Part shown: positions 8,888-44,804 of the stretch, piece by piece
Layout of the letters: every line of letters begins with the position of its first letter
Position numbering within the stretch: position 1 is the stretch's first letter
Source of the DNA: Pseudarthrobacter sp. AL07
GTDB taxonomy: Bacteria > Actinomycetota > Actinomycetes > Actinomycetales > Micrococcaceae
Assembly (NCBI RefSeq): GCF_029960665.1
Contig: NZ_JASBRB010000014.1
Location: forward strand, 1 to 64,000
Direction: 5' to 3'
Length of the DNA: 64,000 nt
The notes under the pieces: model-generated
Databases searched by the model: none
The model's input: only the letters and a program-made list of their open reading frames with translations
Told to the model about the DNA's origin: nothing
Translations under genes and position numbers: made by a program

Positions 8888-8950
8888 CAACGCGGGGTCA
8901 CTTACGGCCCATCCAGAGGCCCGTGATGGGCCGTAAGTGACCCCGCGTTG
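8888..8950. terminator. Perfect 25-bp palindrome (bidirectional terminator or repeat element)
   Basis: Arms at 8888-8912 and 8926-8950 are exact inverse copies of 25 bases (CAACGCGGGGTCACTTACGG...), loop 13 bases, beginning 3 bases after the terC stop. It is much longer than needed for termination and shares the core GG-N-CACTT-NN-GGCCC with palindromes at 44749 and 47112. It probably terminates terC and belongs to a dispersed element family. Confidence 0.8.
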
Positions 8951-32648: not shown

Positions 32649-33140
32649 ATGGCGGACAGGCTCACTCCCGAGCGGCGCAGCTGGAACATGTCCCGCATTA
32701 GGGGCAAAAACACCAAGCCGGAACTGCTGGTGCGCCGCCTCCTCCATGCCAAAGGCTACCGATACCGCTTGCACGGCACGGCCGGCAAAAGCCGCCTGCC
32801 CGGCCGCCCGGACCTGGTATTCGCCGGCCGCCGAAAGGTCATCTTCATCAACGGCTGCTTCTGGCACTTTCACGACTGCCGGGTAGGCCAGCACGCGCCC
32901 AAGGTGAATGCCGCCTTCTGGGAGGCCAAGCGCACGCGCACCAAAGACCGCGACGCCGACCAGCGCCAACGGTTAATGGCCGCCGGCTGGGAGGTGCTCA
33001 CCGTGTGGGAGTGCGAGTTGAAGGACGGCTCCGCCCTCGAAGCCCACCTTGTGGAGTTCCTCGGCGCCCGGCAAGCTGACGCCCTGCAAACCTACAGCAG
33101 GCAAGCCCACAGCAGGAAAGCACCGCCAGCCGGAAGTTGA
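32649..33140 (+). CDS. vsr: Very short patch repair (Vsr-type) endonuclease
   Basis: 163 residues. Full Vsr signature: RRSWNMSRIRGKNTKPELLVRRLLHAKGYRYR, LPGRPDLVFAGRRKVIFINGCFWHFHDC (active-site Asp in PGRPDLV, Cys-x-x-His metal site), and WEVLTVWECEL. It nicks at T:G mismatches caused by deamination of 5-methylcytosine. No cytosine methyltransferase gene is in the window, so either the partner is elsewhere or this is an orphan that works on host or foreign mismatches. A basic tail (TYSRQAHSRKAPPAG) is extra. McrBC-type genes lie 3-7 kb downstream. Confidence 0.93.
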   Translation: MADRLTPERRSWNMSRIRGKNTKPELLVRRLLHAKGYRYRLHGTAGKSRLPGRPDLVFAGRRKVIFINGCFWHFHDCRVGQHAPKVNAAFWEAKRTRTKDRDADQRQRLMAAGWEVLTVWECELKDGSALEAHLVEFLGARQADALQTYSRQAHSRKAPPAGS

Positions 33141-34602: not shown

Positions 34603-36258
34603 ATGAGTGAACCCGCAACGTGGGCCGAGGGCCACTTTAGGTTTTTCCGGAAACCCTTCCATGAATACCGACTGACGGACAGAGTCGCCCTCAGCCAAAT
34701 GCCGCTTTTCATAACCACACTGCTGGCCGTGGTCCTCGTGTCGGCGTTTTTCCCCCGGACCATGGACAACGCGCTATTCGTGGCGTTCCTCTTCTCCCAG
34801 CTGGCCCTCATGGTGCTGTGCTACGTGGTGCCGTGGGACCGCCTGCCGCACACCAGCTTCCTGGTCATCCCGCTGTTGGATTTCGCCTCCATCGGCGTGG
34901 GCAGGGAAGGCGGGCAGGAGAGCCTGGCCGGAATCAGTCTGTTGGCAGTCTTCCCCGTCATCTGGCTATGTGCCTCAGGCTACTACCCCCGGATTTCCCT
35001 GTGGCTGTCCTTCTTCGTGCCATTGGCGATGATCTGGGTTCCGCTGGTTCTTGGCGGAGATGTGTCTGGCCCTACCCTGGTCAAGCCCCTGCTCCTCCCT
35101 GTCATGATGCTCGGAATCGGCGTATCGGTCAGCGTGTTGACCCTGAGCATGACGCGGCAGCAACGGATCCTGGAAGAGAAAGACAAACAGCTCCAAGCCA
35201 GCCTGCTCGGCACCAGGAGACAGGAGGCTTTGCTTAACTCCGTTCTGGACACTGTGCACCTGGGCGTCCTCGCCGTCGACGCAGACGGCCACGACATCCT
35301 GATGAACCGGAAACAGCGCGCCAACCACGAACTGGCGCGCCCGAAGGACATCGATGAGCCGAACGAGCCCCAGCTGCTGGTCTTCGCCGCGGACCGTACC
35401 ACCCCTGTCCCGGTGGAGGACCGGCCTGTGCGCAGGGCTGTCCTCGGCGAGACCTTCACCGACTACCTGGTCTGGCTGGGCGCAGGCACGGAACAGCGGG
35501 CCCTCACCACGAGCGCCCGGGCCATGACGGACCCGGACGGGACGTTCGCCGGCTCGGTAATCGTGTTCAGCGACGTGACAGACCTGGTGGACGCCCTGGC
35601 CGCCAAGGATGATTTCGTCGCCAGCGTGTCCCACGAATTCAGGACCCCGCTGACCTCCATCCTGGGTTACGTGGAACTCCTCCTGGAGGACGACCCCGGT
35701 AACGACCAACTGGAACCGCTGAACATCATCAAGCGCAATTCTGAACGGCTTCTCACCTTGGTGTCTGACCTCCTCGCCACCAGAAACGGGCAACTGATCG
35801 TGAGCCCACACGCCGTCGACGTCGCTGAACTGGTGCGTGCCAGCGTGTCCGCCGCGATGCCCAGGGCCGACGTCTCCCGCGTGACGCTGACAGCCGACAC
35901 GCCAGCGCGGCTGGATGCCCATGTGGACGGCCCCCGCGTCTCCCAGGTGCTGGACAATCTGGTCTCCAACGCGATCAAATATTCGCCCGACGGCGGGAAC
36001 GTGGTGGTGTCGTTGGAGCACGACGACGGCCACCTCGCCTGCCGGGTCAGTGATACGGGCATGGGCATGAGCACCGACGACCAGGCCCAGGTGTTCGCCA
36101 AGTTCTTCCGGACCAGCAACGTCCGCCATACAGCGATTCCCGGTGTAGGCCTGGGCCTGCCCATCAGCAAGGCCATCGTGGAAGCCCACGGCGGAACCAT
36201 CCAGGTGGAAAGCAAACTGGGACAGGGCAGCACGTTCACGTTCCGGATGCCGGCCTAG
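34603..36258 (+). CDS. Membrane sensor histidine kinase with PAS domain
   Basis: 551 residues. Six predicted TM helices (residues about 30-195) with short loops, a coiled-coil (RQQRILEEKDKQLQASLLG), a PAS-like domain (about 210-325, LNSVLDTVHLGVLAVDADGHDILMN), then HisKA with phosphorylated His at 344 (SVSHEFRTPLTS). HATPase boxes are intact: NLVSNAIKYS, DTGMGM, and GVGLGLPISKAIVEAHGG. Likely partner of the divergent regulator. The TM block suggests sensing within or at the membrane. The stop shares its CTAG with the stop of the convergent mcrC-like gene. Confidence 0.92.
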   Translation: MSEPATWAEGHFRFFRKPFHEYRLTDRVALSQMPLFITTLLAVVLVSAFFPRTMDNALFVAFLFSQLALMVLCYVVPWDRLPHTSFLVIPLLDFASIGVGREGGQESLAGISLLAVFPVIWLCASGYYPRISLWLSFFVPLAMIWVPLVLGGDVSGPTLVKPLLLPVMMLGIGVSVSVLTLSMTRQQRILEEKDKQLQASLLGTRRQEALLNSVLDTVHLGVLAVDADGHDILMNRKQRANHELARPKDIDEPNEPQLLVFAADRTTPVPVEDRPVRRAVLGETFTDYLVWLGAGTEQRALTTSARAMTDPDGTFAGSVIVFSDVTDLVDALAAKDDFVASVSHEFRTPLTSILGYVELLLEDDPGNDQLEPLNIIKRNSERLLTLVSDLLATRNGQLIVSPHAVDVAELVRASVSAAMPRADVSRVTLTADTPARLDAHVDGPRVSQVLDNLVSNAIKYSPDGGNVVVSLEHDDGHLACRVSDTGMGMSTDDQAQVFAKFFRTSNVRHTAIPGVGLGLPISKAIVEAHGGTIQVESKLGQGSTFTFRMPA

Positions 36259-37649
36259 CCTCCCGCGCGGGTAGTTGGGCCCACGCCCGCCGGGTTCTCT
36301 GGCCGAGCTTGCGAGGTTAGGGGGCGGGTGGGGACAACTTCGCCCCAGGACTGCCGCGCAAGGTCCGCCACCGCTGCCAGGATGTCCGACGGCGGCATCG
36401 ACAGATCCAGCGGAAACTCCACAATGTCGATGTCAGTGTTGAGGATCCTCCGCAGCTTCATCTCGCCCACCCCCGCATAGACCAGCCAGGCGGTGGGCAC
36501 ACCCAGGGCGGTGCAGTGGGCAAGCATCTGGTAGTGGTCGGCGGTCAGGGAGGCGCCCAAGTCCGTGGCAGCCTTGTACTTTGCGTTGTAGACCACCACC
36601 GGCCGGCCGCCCAACAGGTGCACTGCATCCGGGCGCACGGATAGCCGGTCGGCATCATGGACAGCTTCGCTCAGGAGTGCATTGAACTGCCGCCGCATCT
36701 CCCCCGGATACGCCGCCATGGCCGCGCAGAGCGCCGTGACCACAAAATCCTCGAACACCTGGGCCATGTCCACCACAAACGACGCCGTCTGCTGCTTCCC
36801 CTCGCCCGCCTCGGCGGACGCGTTCTTCAGGATCAGCTCGGCGAGGCGCAGCACTGGCTGGTAGCGCACGTTCATCCGGCTCGGCGTCCATGGCGGCAGG
36901 GGCGCCCCGGCAGGTAGGCGGGTGACGGCGTCGAGCGTTCCCTTCAGCTGCCGCAGGCGGCTCAGCACTTCCGGGCGGACCCCCGGCACCTTTCCCATGC
37001 GCTCGAGCGCGGCGCGCAGGATCCGGTTTTCGGCGATGTCCTCGGTGAACTCGTCGTAGGATACTTCCAGCGGCACCAGCATGCCCGGGCGGCGGGAAAT
37101 CTGGTCGGAAATCCGGATGCGACCCTTGACCGTGCGGAGGGACTCATCAACGGTCAGGTAGCCCTGCAGCACCCCTCGCCCCAAGGCACGCTCTGCCATT
37201 TGCGCCAGGGATTCGGCCAGCGCGCTCCAGAGTTCGCGGTCCTCGGTTGCGGCCACGGAATCTGCCCGGAAGCCCTGGTTGCCGGCGTAGCTGAGGAGAA
37301 ATAGCAGCCGGCTCAGTCCCAGCCGGTCTTTGGGGCGAACATCCAGCTGCAGCGTGGCCGTGCGGACTGAGCCCACCTTTCCCGCGGGCTCGATCCGGTA
37401 CAAACCCATGCCCATTGGGGAGGCCTTGGCCAGCCCGCTGGAGTTCACGAAAGCCGCGCTGGCCGCATCAAGGCGTTCCACAGAGCCTATGGACAGCTCG
37501 TCCAGGACCAGATGGCGCGCTGCGGGACCGCGTCCGCTCTGCTGGGCGCCACCCGACGCTGCGCCACCCTGCGCTGCGCCACCCTGCACGGCCCCTCCTG
37601 ACGCGGCGCCGCCGTGCACCGGAGTGTGGGTTGGCTTAGCTGGTAACAA
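36255..37649 (-). CDS. McrC-like subunit of a McrBC-type restriction system
   Basis: 464 residues, starting 14 bases inside the mcrB-like gene (overlap, coupled). N-terminal low-complexity GGA/Q repeats (residues 13-40) precede the McrC domain: ELSIGSVERLD, GYLTVDESLRTVKGRI, SYDEFTEDIAENRILRAAL, and VVDMAQVFEDFV. The nuclease motif is RPDAVHLLGGRPVVVYNAKYK: the first Asp and the Lys are present, but the usual D/E before x-K is Asn (NAK). Activity may be reduced or use an alternative ligand. McrC cuts DNA when McrB hydrolyses GTP on modified sites. Confidence 0.85.
   Translation of the reverse strand: MLPAKPTHTPVHGGAASGGAVQGGAAQGGAASGGAQQSGRGPAARHLVLDELSIGSVERLDAASAAFVNSSGLAKASPMGMGLYRIEPAGKVGSVRTATLQLDVRPKDRLGLSRLLFLLSYAGNQGFRADSVAATEDRELWSALAESLAQMAERALGRGVLQGYLTVDESLRTVKGRIRISDQISRRPGMLVPLEVSYDEFTEDIAENRILRAALERMGKVPGVRPEVLSRLRQLKGTLDAVTRLPAGAPLPPWTPSRMNVRYQPVLRLAELILKNASAEAGEGKQQTASFVVDMAQVFEDFVVTALCAAMAAYPGEMRRQFNALLSEAVHDADRLSVRPDAVHLLGGRPVVVYNAKYKAATDLGASLTADHYQMLAHCTALGVPTAWLVYAGVGEMKLRRILNTDIDIVEFPLDLSMPPSDILAAVADLARQSWGEVVPTRPLTSQARPENPAGVGPTTRAGG
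37551..37627 (-). repeat. Tandem GGA(A/V)(Q/S) repeat in mcrC-like gene
   Basis: A 15-base GC-rich unit (plus-strand CTGCGCCACCCTGCG type) is repeated about five times and encodes GGAASGGAVQGGAAQGGAA. Such tracts slip during replication; changes in multiples of three alter only the N-terminal linker, other changes would switch the gene off. Confidence 0.7.
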
Positions 37650-39882
37650 GGCGCCCCAGCAGCTGCTCCAGCCCGAACCGTTCCTCCAGCTGCGCGCGCG
37701 TCAGCTGGCCGTGGTAATGCTCTTCCAGCAGCGGCATCAGCTCATATTTCCAGATCCGGCGCAGCCCCGTGGGCGTCTGCGCGGCGGCCTTCATGAAGTA
37801 TGACGGGCCGATCATCAGGTCCCGGTCCCACTCGTCAATAGCGGCGTTGAGCGCATCAAGCAGCAGCGCCGGCGTGGTGTCCAGGTCCCGCGCCTGCAGG
37901 AACCTCAGCAGCGACCCCTTCACCGGCTCCGTCTGCGGGTGCAGCTCGATGAACGCAAACCGGCGCCGAATGGCGGCATCCATCATGGCGATGGACCGGT
38001 CCGCGGTGTTCATGGTGCCGATGATGTACAGGTTATCCGGCAGCGTGAACGGCTCGTTGGGGCTGTACTGCAGGTAGATCCGGTCATCGCGGTATTCCAG
38101 CAGGAAGTAGAGCTCGCCGAACACCTTGGCCAGGTTGGCCCGGTTCATCTCGTCAATGATCAGGAAGTAGGGCTTCTTTTCGTTCCCGCGCTTTGCGGCT
38201 TCCTCGGCCAGCCGGCGCAGCGGTCCTGCCACGAGTTTGAAGGCCACTTGGCCCTCGTCCGTTTTGTCCGGCCGGTAGCCCTCGAAAAAGTCCTCGTACG
38301 CGTACGACGGGTGGAACTGCACCAGCTTCACCCGCTCATCCGTGCTGTCCTGGGCCAGTTCCGCCGCAAGATGCTTGGCCAGGTACGTCTTGCCCGTTCC
38401 GGGCGGCCCGTACAGGACCAGCTGGCGGTTCTCCTCCAGCAGTTCCGCGATCTCCTGCAGCGGCTCCAGGTCCATGTGCAGCGACTCCGCGAAGTCGCGG
38501 CTCAGCGGGCGGAAGCCCTCCTGCACAGGGGGTACGACGGCGGCAGGTTCCGCGTCGCCGTCGTCCTCCGGTTCCGCCTCGGCCGGGACGAGCGCCTGGA
38601 GCGCCTGCACTACCCTGGTCACGTCGACAACGATCCCCGAGGTGGCCAGCTGGCGCTGGACGTGACGGGGCAGATCGGTGGTGGCGTGGCCGTCGTCGTC
38701 CAGCCAACGCACCTTGCGCCGCAGGCGGCGGTTGTCATCGTTGTGCCCGGGCTCGCCCAGCACGACGCCCAGCCGCACGGTGCCGGCGTGCTGGAACAGA
38801 ACCAGGTCGCCGGGCTTCATGACCGTGAGGAAGGCGAACACCGCCGTTTTGGTGTCCTCCCGCTCCACGTAGCCCAGGTGCTTGTAGTCCTCGTCCACCG
38901 CGTGCTGCACCAGCCCCGCGGTCACCCCGGGGTCCAGATGGCGGAGATGTTCGACGTCGAGCGTCACCTTCTCCTCTTCCTGCCACGCGGTGAGGAGCTC
39001 GGCGTTGTCGCTGTGGGTACGCAGCAGCCACGCGCGGCGCCCGGGGTCCCCGACCTTGCGCCACTGGCTGACCAGCTGGCGGGCGTACCAGTCGATGCGC
39101 TGGCCGGCCTGTTCATCCAAGTGCAGCCGGATGCGGTGGATGTCCGCGGTGATGTCTTCATCACTGTCGCCCTTGGCCCCGCCCACCAGGGAGGCGAACG
39201 CGTCCCGGATTTCCTGCCGTTCCACGTCCGCCACAACGGGCTCGAAGTAGCTCGGCCACGCCAGGTACTCGATGCTGCGGCGGATGGCGGGCTGATCCCC
39301 CGGCGTGCCCGCGGCGAGCTCGTGGAAATTGAGCGGGTCCTTCAGCGCCTTGGCGATGGCTGCAGGAATCTGCTGGTCCACGTGCTGCACAAAGCGGCAG
39401 AGCCATTTGAGGTGGTCCCAAATGGTCCAGTTGAATTCGGCGGTGCGGTCCCTGATCACGCCGTGGTCAGTCATGCCCTTGTAGAGTTCCTCGGGCAGCT
39501 CCAGCGGTGCTTCCAACGGTGTTTCCAGCCAGGACGCGGCCTCAGCCACACGGGCACGCTTGACCTTGAGCGACTTCACCTCGTGCGCCAGGGGCAGCGA
39601 CTGCAGGAAGAGCAGCTCGACGGCCAGTTGCTTGGCCTCCCGGGACGCGTCTTCGAGGTTCTGCCGGAGGTTTGTCATCATGGGCGCCTTGGCATCCGCC
39701 GTTCCCCGGTCCAGGCGTTCCAGCAGCTCTGCCGCAGCCTCCGCGGTCCAGGTCAGCGTGTTTCCGTCCAAAGCTGACGGCTTGCCCTGCAAGCCCGGTC
39801 CCAGCACAAACCACGCAGCGTCCTCGATCTCCTTTGAGACACCGAGGGCGCGGTGCATGGCAGTCTTGGGGTTTGGGGTCAT
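37636..39882 (-). CDS. McrB-like AAA+ GTPase with N-terminal PUA/EVE-like region
   Basis: 748 residues. C-terminal AAA+ domain of McrB type: VLYGPPGTGKTYLAKH (about residue 490), FHPSYAYEDFFEGYRP, YFLIIDEMNRANLAKVFGELYFLLEYRD (Walker B) and IGTMNTADRSIAMMDAAIRRRF (McrB GTP-specific MNxxDR motif). Upstream, at about 320-420, FLTVMKPGDLVLFQHAGTVRLGVVLGEPG resembles a PUA/EVE-like modified-base reader. The N-terminal 300 residues are helical with no known domain. With the McrC gene it forms a type IV modification-dependent restriction unit. The recognition target cannot be told. Confidence 0.87.
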   Translation of the reverse strand: MTPNPKTAMHRALGVSKEIEDAAWFVLGPGLQGKPSALDGNTLTWTAEAAAELLERLDRGTADAKAPMMTNLRQNLEDASREAKQLAVELLFLQSLPLAHEVKSLKVKRARVAEAASWLETPLEAPLELPEELYKGMTDHGVIRDRTAEFNWTIWDHLKWLCRFVQHVDQQIPAAIAKALKDPLNFHELAAGTPGDQPAIRRSIEYLAWPSYFEPVVADVERQEIRDAFASLVGGAKGDSDEDITADIHRIRLHLDEQAGQRIDWYARQLVSQWRKVGDPGRRAWLLRTHSDNAELLTAWQEEEKVTLDVEHLRHLDPGVTAGLVQHAVDEDYKHLGYVEREDTKTAVFAFLTVMKPGDLVLFQHAGTVRLGVVLGEPGHNDDNRRLRRKVRWLDDDGHATTDLPRHVQRQLATSGIVVDVTRVVQALQALVPAEAEPEDDGDAEPAAVVPPVQEGFRPLSRDFAESLHMDLEPLQEIAELLEENRQLVLYGPPGTGKTYLAKHLAAELAQDSTDERVKLVQFHPSYAYEDFFEGYRPDKTDEGQVAFKLVAGPLRRLAEEAAKRGNEKKPYFLIIDEMNRANLAKVFGELYFLLEYRDDRIYLQYSPNEPFTLPDNLYIIGTMNTADRSIAMMDAAIRRRFAFIELHPQTEPVKGSLLRFLQARDLDTTPALLLDALNAAIDEWDRDLMIGPSYFMKAAAQTPTGLRRIWKYELMPLLEEHYHGQLTRAQLEERFGLEQLLGRLVTS

Positions 39883-39953: not shown

Positions 39954-40205
39954 CTATTTGACTGACACGGCCCCGGCACCAGGCCGCTTGCGCCCAAGAA
40001 TGAAGTAGCCCATCGGCCCGATGAAATTGATCAGGGTAGCCACGCGCCAGGCCGCTTTTGGCCCGTTTATTTGGTCAGCCGGGCGCTTGGAAATGTCCCG
40101 CTGGGCGGCCAGCATCAGTGACACCTGCGCGATTCCGATGGCCACAAATCCTGCCCGTGCCGCCGGTGACATCTCTTTCCAGGTCTTTTTGGTTTTCTTG
40201 GCCAT
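39954..40205 (-). CDS. Small PLDc_N-like membrane protein
   Basis: 83 residues from the ATG at 40205 (AAGGAG upstream in AAGGAGCG). Lys-rich start (MAKKTKKTWKEMS), then two hydrophobic helices: AGFVAIGIAQVSLMLAA and ATLINFIGPMGYFILG. ISKRPADQINGPKAAWRVATLINFIGP matches the N-terminal domain of cardiolipin synthases (PLDc_N), which occurs alone in many actinobacteria. No phospholipase domain. Unknown role. Confidence 0.8.
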   Translation of the reverse strand: MAKKTKKTWKEMSPAARAGFVAIGIAQVSLMLAAQRDISKRPADQINGPKAAWRVATLINFIGPMGYFILGRKRPGAGAVSVK

Positions 40206-40240
40206 GATCAAACGCTCCTTAGTGGATATTCCCAGTTTCC

Positions 40241-44748: not shown

Positions 44749-44804
44749 GCGCGAACGGACACTTGAGGCCCCGGATCCATGGGGCCTCAAGTGTCCGTTC
44801 GCGC
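44749..44804. terminator. Perfect 24-bp palindrome between the DHA2 exporter and ABC exporter
   Basis: Arms 44749-44772 and 44781-44804 are exact inverses (GCGCGAACGGACACTTGAGG...), loop GGATCCAT. It ends 45 bases past the exporter stop at 44849 and would terminate it. Near-identical arms are found at 47112-47167, the other end of the same exporter/regulator block. Bases 44580-44748 hold the ABC operon promoter region and no gene. Confidence 0.82.

What the first reader, a model, noticed from the sequence alone, without database searches (positions are those of the whole stretch)
36255..39882. McrBC-type pair with a reader-like domain and a variant McrC active site
The McrB-like protein has a PUA/EVE-like segment before its GTPase, which suggests recognition of modified DNA. 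The McrC-like nuclease has Asn where the D/E of the D-x-K motif is expected. Either the site uses another acidic ligand or the nuclease is impaired, and the pair might act by DNA binding alone.
Basis: partly seen in the sequence, partly recalled or inferred. Interest (0 to 1): 0.65.

Follow-up and report, generated by a model that had tools for sequence, protein, structure and literature searches.

The report
Core McrBC motor losing its nuclease
Nearly every species in this group of soil bacteria carries the same DNA-defence machine, with its motor preserved almost letter for letter but its DNA-cutting site broken again and again in different ways, which suggests the machine now does a job that does not need cutting.

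Summary
In detail: McrB (37636-39882, -) and McrC (36255-37649, -) overlap, and McrC has Asn355 where PD-(D/E)xK nucleases have Asp/Glu. The wider pattern is the finding. The pair is syntenic and near-core in the Arthrobacter/Pseudarthrobacter/Paenarthrobacter genus (McrB in 197 of 206 genomes). In 120 distinct genus McrC the catalytic triad is intact in only 43; clades lost different residues (D355N in 46, the window's type; also D341G, D355G, K357Q/N/R), needing at least 8 intact/lost changes on the McrB tree. In 39 divergent McrC, nine of them from the same genus, the triad is intact in 39. The rest is kept: 70 of 72 conserved McrB motor positions invariant, two at 116/117; Arg258 120/120; dN/dS 0.04-0.14. 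No compensating acidic residue appears in the nuclease domain. Best reading: a McrBC kept as a GTP-driven nucleic-acid-binding or translocating machine for which cutting is dispensable. Nuclease death is likely but unproven for Asn355, since Asn variants of this fold are reported. Role unknown; new variant of a known kind.

The parts
37636..39882 (-). McrB homologue, 748 aa
   Evidence: McrB in 197 of 206 genus genomes
39046..39882 (-). McrB aa 1-279, helical N-terminal domain without Pfam match; the F-N/H-G-G-x-G motif of divergent copies (aligned to aa 143-148) is I-R-D-R-T-A in the genus
   Evidence: AlphaFold pLDDT block means mostly 70-95 over aa 21-210 but 38 at aa 141-150; no PDB fold match at E<=0.001
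38563..39045 (-). McrB aa 280-440, sensor-type (reader-like) domain, homologous to the N-terminal domain of Mrr_cat restriction nucleases
37639..38472 (-). McrB aa 471-748, AAA+ GTPase; Walker A aa 492-499 (38386-38409), Walker B D577/E578, signature N625-T-A-D628 (37999-38010), R639-R641
36255..37649 (-). McrC homologue, 464 aa
   Evidence: PF10117 E 8.5e-64
36810..37517 (-). McrC aa 45-280, scaffold/finger part that stimulates the GTPase in known McrC
   Evidence: 16 positions here are near-invariant in 39 divergent McrC; in 120 genus rows 14 are invariant, K107 119, Y263 113 (rest Phe)
36876..36878 (-). Arg258, counterpart of T. gammatolerans McrC Arg263 (GTPase-stimulating)
   Evidence: alignment; 120 of 120; role from PMC7680126 (passages)
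36339..36809 (-). McrC aa 281-437, PD-(D/E)xK nuclease domain
36627..36629 (-). Asp341 (PD motif), kept here, Gly in another clade
36585..36587 (-). Asn355 in place of the (D/E) of (D/E)xK
36579..36581 (-). Lys357 (K of (D/E)xK), kept here; Gln, Asn or Arg in other clades
36516..36518 (-). His378; Tyr in 39 of 39 divergent McrC, His in all 46 Asn355 rows
36275..36334 (.). about 60-bp dispersed repeat that forms part of the McrC C-terminal tail in this genome
   Evidence: 12 further copies in the own genome, 78-92% identity
32649..33140 (+). Vsr endonuclease, conserved neighbour, convergent to McrBC; used as a local control
   Evidence: TIGR00632 E 1.6e-39
39954..40232 (-). small PLDc_N-domain protein just upstream; marks the left edge of empty sites
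   Evidence: PF13396 E 3.7e-5

Best explanation
This is a mostly vertically inherited McrBC pair, near-core to its genus, retained for something other than cutting DNA with McrC. SHOWN by comparison: the GTPase motifs, the McrC GTPase-stimulating arginine and the pair itself are kept under strong purifying selection, while the McrC nuclease site has changed repeatedly and differently in different clades. INFERRED: McrB's sensor domain recognises a modified or otherwise marked DNA (or RNA) feature, McrB hexamers are switched on by McrC, and the complex binds or translocates along the nucleic acid as a roadblock, remodeller or recruitment platform; in the Asn355 clade cutting is lost or strongly reduced. 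Which process it serves (phage DNA, host chromosome, cell cycle) is not determined.
For: Near-core and syntenic: McrB in 197 of 206 genus genomes, and a 198th holds McrC running to a contig end; gene order thioesterase-PLDc_N-McrB-McrC-HK/RR-Vsr recurs, with variants; McrB distances track those of HK and thioesterase, r 0.91 and 0.84. Nuclease site eroded: D341/D355/K357 intact in 43 of 120 distinct McrC, and lost in 44 of 61 genomes with a G handle; all seven nuclease-site residues checked match the divergent consensus in 11 of 120, against 38 of 39 divergent McrC. Of 33 positions near-invariant in those 39, the ones that vary in over 5% of genus rows are E300, D341, D355, K357, K359, Y373, Q374, Y378, plus Y263F. 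At least 8 intact/lost and 13 triad-state changes on the McrB tree. Motor kept: 70 of 72 conserved McrB positions invariant, two at 116/117; Arg258 120/120. dN/dS 0.108/0.119 for the McrC halves, 0.136 for the nuclease domain among triad-lost rows, 0.044 for the GTPase. Control: neighbouring Vsr E25 89/89, D55 90/90, H73 90/90, H75 90/90. No gained acid in the nuclease domain. One PF10117 match in the own genome, so no second copy stands in. EcMcrC triad mutants are cleavage-impaired (PMC7680126 passage).
Against: Asn and Gln variants of this active site are reported in the nuclease superfamily (PMC1189080 passage), so N355-A-K and D-A-Q are not proof of death. D341 and K357 are invariant in all 46 Asn355 rows, though 53% of nuclease-domain sites are invariant there too. 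A third of genus McrC (43 of 120) keep the triad. Two rows nested in lost clades have the lost Asp (L128, L170): reversion or recombination. The higher dN/dS of triad-lost rows is not confined to the nuclease domain (0.119 against 0.086 in the N-terminal half). The pair is dispensable: six genomes lack McrB at a flank-intact locus. No activity was measured.
Confidence: 0.6

Rival explanations
1. Ordinary type IV restriction with a variant but working site: Asn355 (or Gln/Arg/Asn at 357) still positions metal and water, so McrC cuts modified invading DNA.
For: Superfamily members with Asn/Gln at these places are reported (PMC1189080, passage). D341 and K357 are invariant in 46 of 46 Asn355 rows. 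43 of 120 genus McrC keep the full triad. The sensor domain is shared with Mrr-type nucleases.
Against: It does not account for D341G, D355G or D355G+K357N in other clades of the same orthologue, for changes at E300, K359, Q374 and Y378, or for the near-core, syntenic distribution. All 39 divergent copies keep the standard triad.
Confidence: 0.2
2. Another nuclease supplies the cut: McrBC recognises and translocates, and a partner such as the adjacent near-core Vsr nicks.
For: Vsr is found beside McrBC in 92 of the 119 loci compared (loci of unequal length), is in 199 of 204 genus genomes and keeps its active site. CoCoNuT-branch systems with a missing or inactive McrC nuclease are reported to be encoded with HEPN nucleases (PMC11090510, passages).
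Against: Vsr is on the opposite strand and, in the window, separated from McrC by three genes (HK, RR, Hpt). Vsr persists at the locus in six genomes without McrB. No HEPN search was made.
Confidence: 0.09
3. Dampened autoimmunity: the nuclease was weakened to avoid damage to the host's own methylated DNA, and the complex still defends by binding.
For: Loss is repeated and clade-specific. E. coli McrBC killing its host on genome methylation is reported (PMC2614495; only title and start of abstract seen in the listing).
Against: Triad loss is not linked with carrying a C5 DNA methyltransferase gene (PF00145, E<=1e-10): 23 of 44 lost against 10 of 17 intact, Fisher p 0.78 (one search drew 204 of 206 genomes and cuts its list of negatives, so unlisted genomes were counted as without). 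The own genome has none. Other methyltransferase types were not tested.
Confidence: 0.08
4. Plain pseudogenisation of a former restriction system.
For: Changes of catalytic residues; six genomes with the pair deleted, one with a 36-codon McrC remnant, and a further genome with a McrC fragment (L095).
Against: Open reading frames in 56 of 58 same-genus loci of the first set; the two broken ones (L087, L090) come from assemblies listed with 6% contamination. dN/dS 0.04-0.14.
Confidence: 0.03

Closest known systems
Classical McrBC type IV restriction (E. coli K-12, T. gammatolerans)
   Same: Adjacent mcrB-mcrC; McrB with the N-T-A-D GTPase signature; McrC PF10117 with the GTPase-stimulating Arg counterpart
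   Different: Nuclease triad not intact in 77 of 120 genus McrC; near-core and syntenic in a genus; helical N-terminal domain plus Mrr-type sensor
CoCoNuT systems (PMC11090510; passages read)
   Same: McrC homologues with inactivated PD-(D/E)xK domains kept as folds
   Different: CoCoNuT McrB are reported with the shortened NxD signature and long coiled coils, and those with an inactive or missing McrC nuclease with HEPN partners; here the signature is N-T-A-D. HEPN and coiled coils were not searched for
PcdA of Staphylococcus (PMC10602043; abstract and passages read)
   Same: An McrB-family protein of one lineage reported as moved from restriction to a cellular role
   Different: PcdA has degraded nucleotide motifs and no McrC partner; here the motor motifs are intact and McrC is kept
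Mrr_cat-type restriction nucleases (PADLOC PDC-S02)
   Same: Homologous N-terminal sensor domain, hhalign E 4.4e-10
   Different: There it is fused to an Mrr_cat nuclease, here to a GTPase

Membership tests
McrBC type IV restriction system | McrB-type AAA+ GTPase with intact Walker A/B and NxxD signature | tested here: met
McrBC type IV restriction system | Adjacent McrC with PF10117 and the GTPase-stimulating Arg/Lys | tested here: met
   residue only, no activity
McrBC type IV restriction system | PD-(D/E)xK catalytic triad in McrC | tested here: not met
   N355 in the window; 77 of 120 genus McrC lack at least one triad residue
McrBC type IV restriction system | GTP-dependent cleavage of modified DNA | not testable with these tools
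   no assay
CoCoNuT | NxD GTPase signature | tested here: not met
   N625-T-A-D628 in the window, N and D invariant in 117 genus rows
CoCoNuT | Coiled-coil fusion and HEPN nuclease partner | not tested
   not searched
EVE-domain McrB | EVE domain (PF01878) before the GTPase | tested here: inconclusive
   no Pfam match in aa 1-455, no PF01878 match at E<=0.01 in the own genome; Mrr-type sensor homology instead; fold not predicted with confidence
PcdA-like co-opted McrB | Degraded nucleotide-binding motifs and no McrC partner | tested here: not met
   motifs intact, McrC present

The most novel reading that the evidence does not exclude
A whole McrBC motor-regulator pair was domesticated at the base of the genus. 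Its N-terminal domain was reworked once and then held fixed, and it now works as a GTP-driven, non-cutting nucleic-acid machine with a general cellular or silencing role. The nuclease domain is kept only as a structural or binding module, so its catalytic residues drift away clade by clade.
Probability: 0.45. Interest if true: 0.82.

Novelty: new variant of a known kind. Interest (0 to 1): 0.66.

Why it matters
Restriction systems are usually read as patchy, mobile defence genes whose point is cutting. Here one is near-core across about 200 species genomes, its motor is the best-kept part, and its cutting site is the part that varies. That makes a direct test possible of what a McrBC motor does without McrC cutting, using natural triad-intact and triad-lost versions of one orthologue (66-94% identical to the window's McrC). 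It also warns annotation pipelines that name such genes 'restriction' by homology alone.

Tried and rejected
Another acidic ligand: searched aa 281-437 for residues fixed in the Asn355 clade or the Gly341 clade and rare in triad-intact rows; none is Asp/Glu. Host 5mC methylation as driver: no association, p 0.78. Redundant second McrBC: one PF10117 match in the own genome. Pseudogene: dN/dS 0.04-0.14. Structure of McrC: AlphaFold failed (mean pLDDT 46.9), so no geometry of the site is claimed. Structure of the McrB N terminus: only the helical part is usable (mean 56.9 overall), and Foldseek found no PDB match at E<=0.001; a PDB search with the profile gave one chance-level hit (E 1.6), and one with an Mrr-type relative gave nothing meaningful. 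Papers: the searches showed, in the titles and abstract starts listed, no report of a core or nuclease-eroded McrBC in Arthrobacter; one search listed 12 of 398 papers and 12 of 24, and most subscription papers are not in that library.

Papers and what was seen: PMC11090510, PMC7680126, PMC1189080, PMC7641849, PMC12707154 passages; PMC10602043 abstract and passages; PMC6624300 reference-list passages only; PMC2614495 title and start of abstract in a listing; all others listings only.

Limits of the counts. The catalytic triad was fixed beforehand from the family motif; the wider set of nuclease-site positions (E300, K359, Y373, Q374, Y378) was chosen after seeing the tables. Fisher p for 8 of 8 against 1 of 25 is 6.5e-7 and is post hoc; for the triad alone (3 of 3 against 6 of 30) it is 0.015. 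Trees are 'quick' searches with many weakly supported forks, so 8 changes is a parsimony minimum on one tree; two apparent reversions are inside that count.

Rows dropped. Of 187 loci given to, 180 McrC were aligned; L087 and L090 (frameshifted) and L093-L097 (fragments or none) were left out. 141 genus rows were collapsed to 120 distinct reading frames. L109, L115 and L154 lacked a usable McrB and were left out of McrB counts (117 rows). For the 39 divergent McrC, 38 McrB were usable and 19 full-length ones (L202 left out). McrB structure used 54 of 78 available sequences and McrC 56 of 81, window included. One search covered 206 genomes, searches covered 204. Of 7 places found, 5 were scanned.
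Full report
WHAT IS THERE. The window encodes, on the minus strand, McrB (37636-39882, 748 aa) and McrC (36255-37649, 464 aa) with a 14-base overlap. McrC is a clear PF10117 member (E 8.5e-64) and aligns to the solved T. gammatolerans McrC (E 6.7e-9 alone; 3.1e-13 as profile). McrB aligns to the solved McrB GTPases (best E 1.2e-45). McrC residue 355, codon 36585-36587, is Asn where the archaeal protein has the Asp of DAKY.

It matches PADLOC PDC-S02 in 53 of 54 genus members tested at E<=1, best 4.4e-6 for that model. Of seven places found with that model in 59 genomes of the order, five were scanned and four carry an Mrr_cat nuclease; the two profiles align over 133 columns at E 4.4e-10. So the segment is homologous to the sensor part of Mrr-type nucleases. 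That it has a PUA/EVE fold is plausible from general knowledge but was not shown; the model is poor there. aa 471-748 is the GTPase.

DISTRIBUTION. In a search of 99 relatives, 56 of 61 same-genus genomes (own included) have a full-length McrC, two more have it split by frameshifts, and three have at most fragments; of 38 other genomes of the order two match strongly and one weakly. McrB is found in 197 of 206 genus genomes at E<=1e-20. Of the nine without, G168 has McrC running to a contig end, and six (G228, G221, G037, G152, G021, G136) have the flanking genes without McrB; of these only G221 keeps a McrC remnant, of 36 codons. G033 (a McrC fragment in L095) and G242 were not examined at the locus. 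In the family, 111 of 395 genomes match McrC: 73 of the same genus and 38 of other genera; at least four same-genus genomes do not, and the list of non-matches is cut. The 80 named relatives kept are labelled Arthrobacter, Pseudarthrobacter or Paenarthrobacter. The gene order around the pair is largely shared, with variants, and pairwise distances of McrB follow those of neighbouring genes (r 0.91 HK, 0.84 thioesterase, 0.81 McrC, 0.78 ABC, 0.74 Vsr, but 0.11 for the second ABC gene, probably because its best hits mix two paralogues). This is what a mostly vertically inherited, near-core locus looks like.

THE NUCLEASE SITE. I tabulated D341, D355, K357, Q374 and Y378 in 180 McrC, and added E300 and K359 later. 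In 39 divergent McrC (31-56% identity, nine of them second copies in the same genus) the triad D341/D355/K357 is intact in 39 of 39. In 120 distinct genus McrC it is intact in 43; the rest are DNK 46 (the window's type), GDK 12, DDQ 7, DGK 3, DGN 3, GEK 2, DDR 2, DDN 1, GDR 1. Counted by genome, 44 of 61 genomes with a G handle have lost the triad. All seven positions match the divergent consensus in 11 of 120, against 38 of 39. The variants mostly form clades: DNK a Pseudarthrobacter-rich group, GDK/GEK a group with A. humicola, DDQ/DDN the A. globiformis/A. pascens group. On a tree of McrB, a different protein, at least 8 changes between intact and lost and 13 changes of triad state are needed. 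L128 and L170 carry Asp within lost clades, so some changes may be reversions or recombination.

WHAT IS KEPT. Of 33 McrC positions near-invariant in the divergent copies, those that vary in more than 5% of the genus rows are E300, D341, D355, K357, K359, Y373 (to Phe), Q374, Y378 and Y263 (to Phe, 6%); L389 varies in exactly 5%. The two halves of McrC are otherwise equally variable (median entropy 0.12 and 0.12). In McrB 70 of 72 such positions are invariant in 117 rows and two are at 116. Arg258, the counterpart of the GTPase-stimulating arginine, is 120 of 120 (role from PMC7680126, passages). Pairwise dN/dS is 0.108 and 0.119 for the McrC halves, and 0.117, 0.123 and 0.044 for the McrB N-terminal, sensor and GTPase parts. 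Among triad-lost rows it is 0.119 and 0.136 for the two McrC halves, among triad-intact rows 0.086 and 0.068: constraint on the nuclease domain is weaker after loss but still strong, and the rise is seen in both halves. As a local control, the neighbouring Vsr endonuclease keeps E25 (89 of 89) and D55, H73 and H75 (90 of 90) (that these are its active-site residues is recalled).

WHAT THE Asn CLADE SAYS. Nuclease-domain residues fixed in over 90% of the Asn355 rows and present in under 20% of triad-intact rows are S327, N355, T369, H378 and F412; none is acidic. The clade keeps D341 and K357 in 46 of 46, which may mean remaining use of the pocket, but 53% of the domain's sites are invariant in that clade, so it proves little. 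The literature reports superfamily members with Asn or Gln at these places (PMC1189080, passage). In E. [quoted passage not shown] I therefore call nuclease loss likely for Asn355, and more secure for D341G, D355G and D355G+K357N.

A GENUS-SPECIFIC SHIFT. In the N-terminal domain the divergent copies carry F-N/H-G-G-x-G (aligned to aa 143-148); all 117 genus rows have I143, D145, R146 and A148 instead, and in the 54 sequences of alignment A1 the whole stretch T138-T153 is invariant. In the sensor domain Q289 of the divergent copies is Thr or Ser in the genus, and Q291 is mostly changed. So recognition or partner contacts appear to have changed once at the base and then stayed fixed, before or while the nuclease site drifted. 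This order is an inference.

MECHANISM. Best reading (0.6): a McrBC whose GTP-driven motor and its McrC switch are the selected function, with cutting dispensable. Steps shown: motor and switch residues kept, catalytic residues changed repeatedly, purifying selection, near-core locus. Steps inferred: binding of a marked nucleic acid, translocation or roadblock, cellular role. Rivals are given with weights in the rival list.

KNOWN KIND. By descent it is McrBC. It fails one tested defining feature of a type IV restriction enzyme, the catalytic triad, so I do not file it as a working restriction system. CoCoNuTs with inactivated McrC (PMC11090510, passages) and PcdA (PMC10602043, abstract and passages) are the nearest precedents; it lacks the CoCoNuT NxD signature and PcdA's degraded motor. 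The searches listed under Tried and rejected showed no earlier description.

CHECK. After holding the report against the calls I mended several details (positions kept in the McrC N-terminal half, the invariant stretch of McrB, the dN/dS of both halves in lost and intact rows, identity ranges, caps of listings). None required a change of odds.

Noticed in passing
window 32649-33140 (+): A Vsr mismatch endonuclease is near-core in the genus (199 of 204 genomes) although C5 DNA methyltransferase genes (PF00145, E<=1e-10) are in only 105 of 204 and absent from the own genome. A Vsr without its usual methylase partner is unexplained.
   Followed up: partly
window 36275-36334: A dispersed ~60-bp repeat (12 further copies in the own genome, 78-92% identity) forms part of the McrC C-terminal tail; short protein-level matches to this tail appear in many genus genomes.
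   Followed up: partly
L219, L221-L224: Natural empty sites: five genomes have the PLDc_N gene next to the histidine kinase (L221-L224) or to Vsr (L219), with no match to mcrB or mcrC between them.
   Followed up: partly
window 37530-37613 (-): The McrC N terminus has a Gly-Ala-rich repeat (aa ~13-40) before the conserved part at about aa 45; alignments to relatives often start only after it.
   Followed up: no
window 44749-44804 and 8888-8950: Two perfect inverted repeats (24-nt arms, 8 nt between; 26-nt arms, 11 nt between), hairpin-like; a following T-run was not checked.
   Followed up: no
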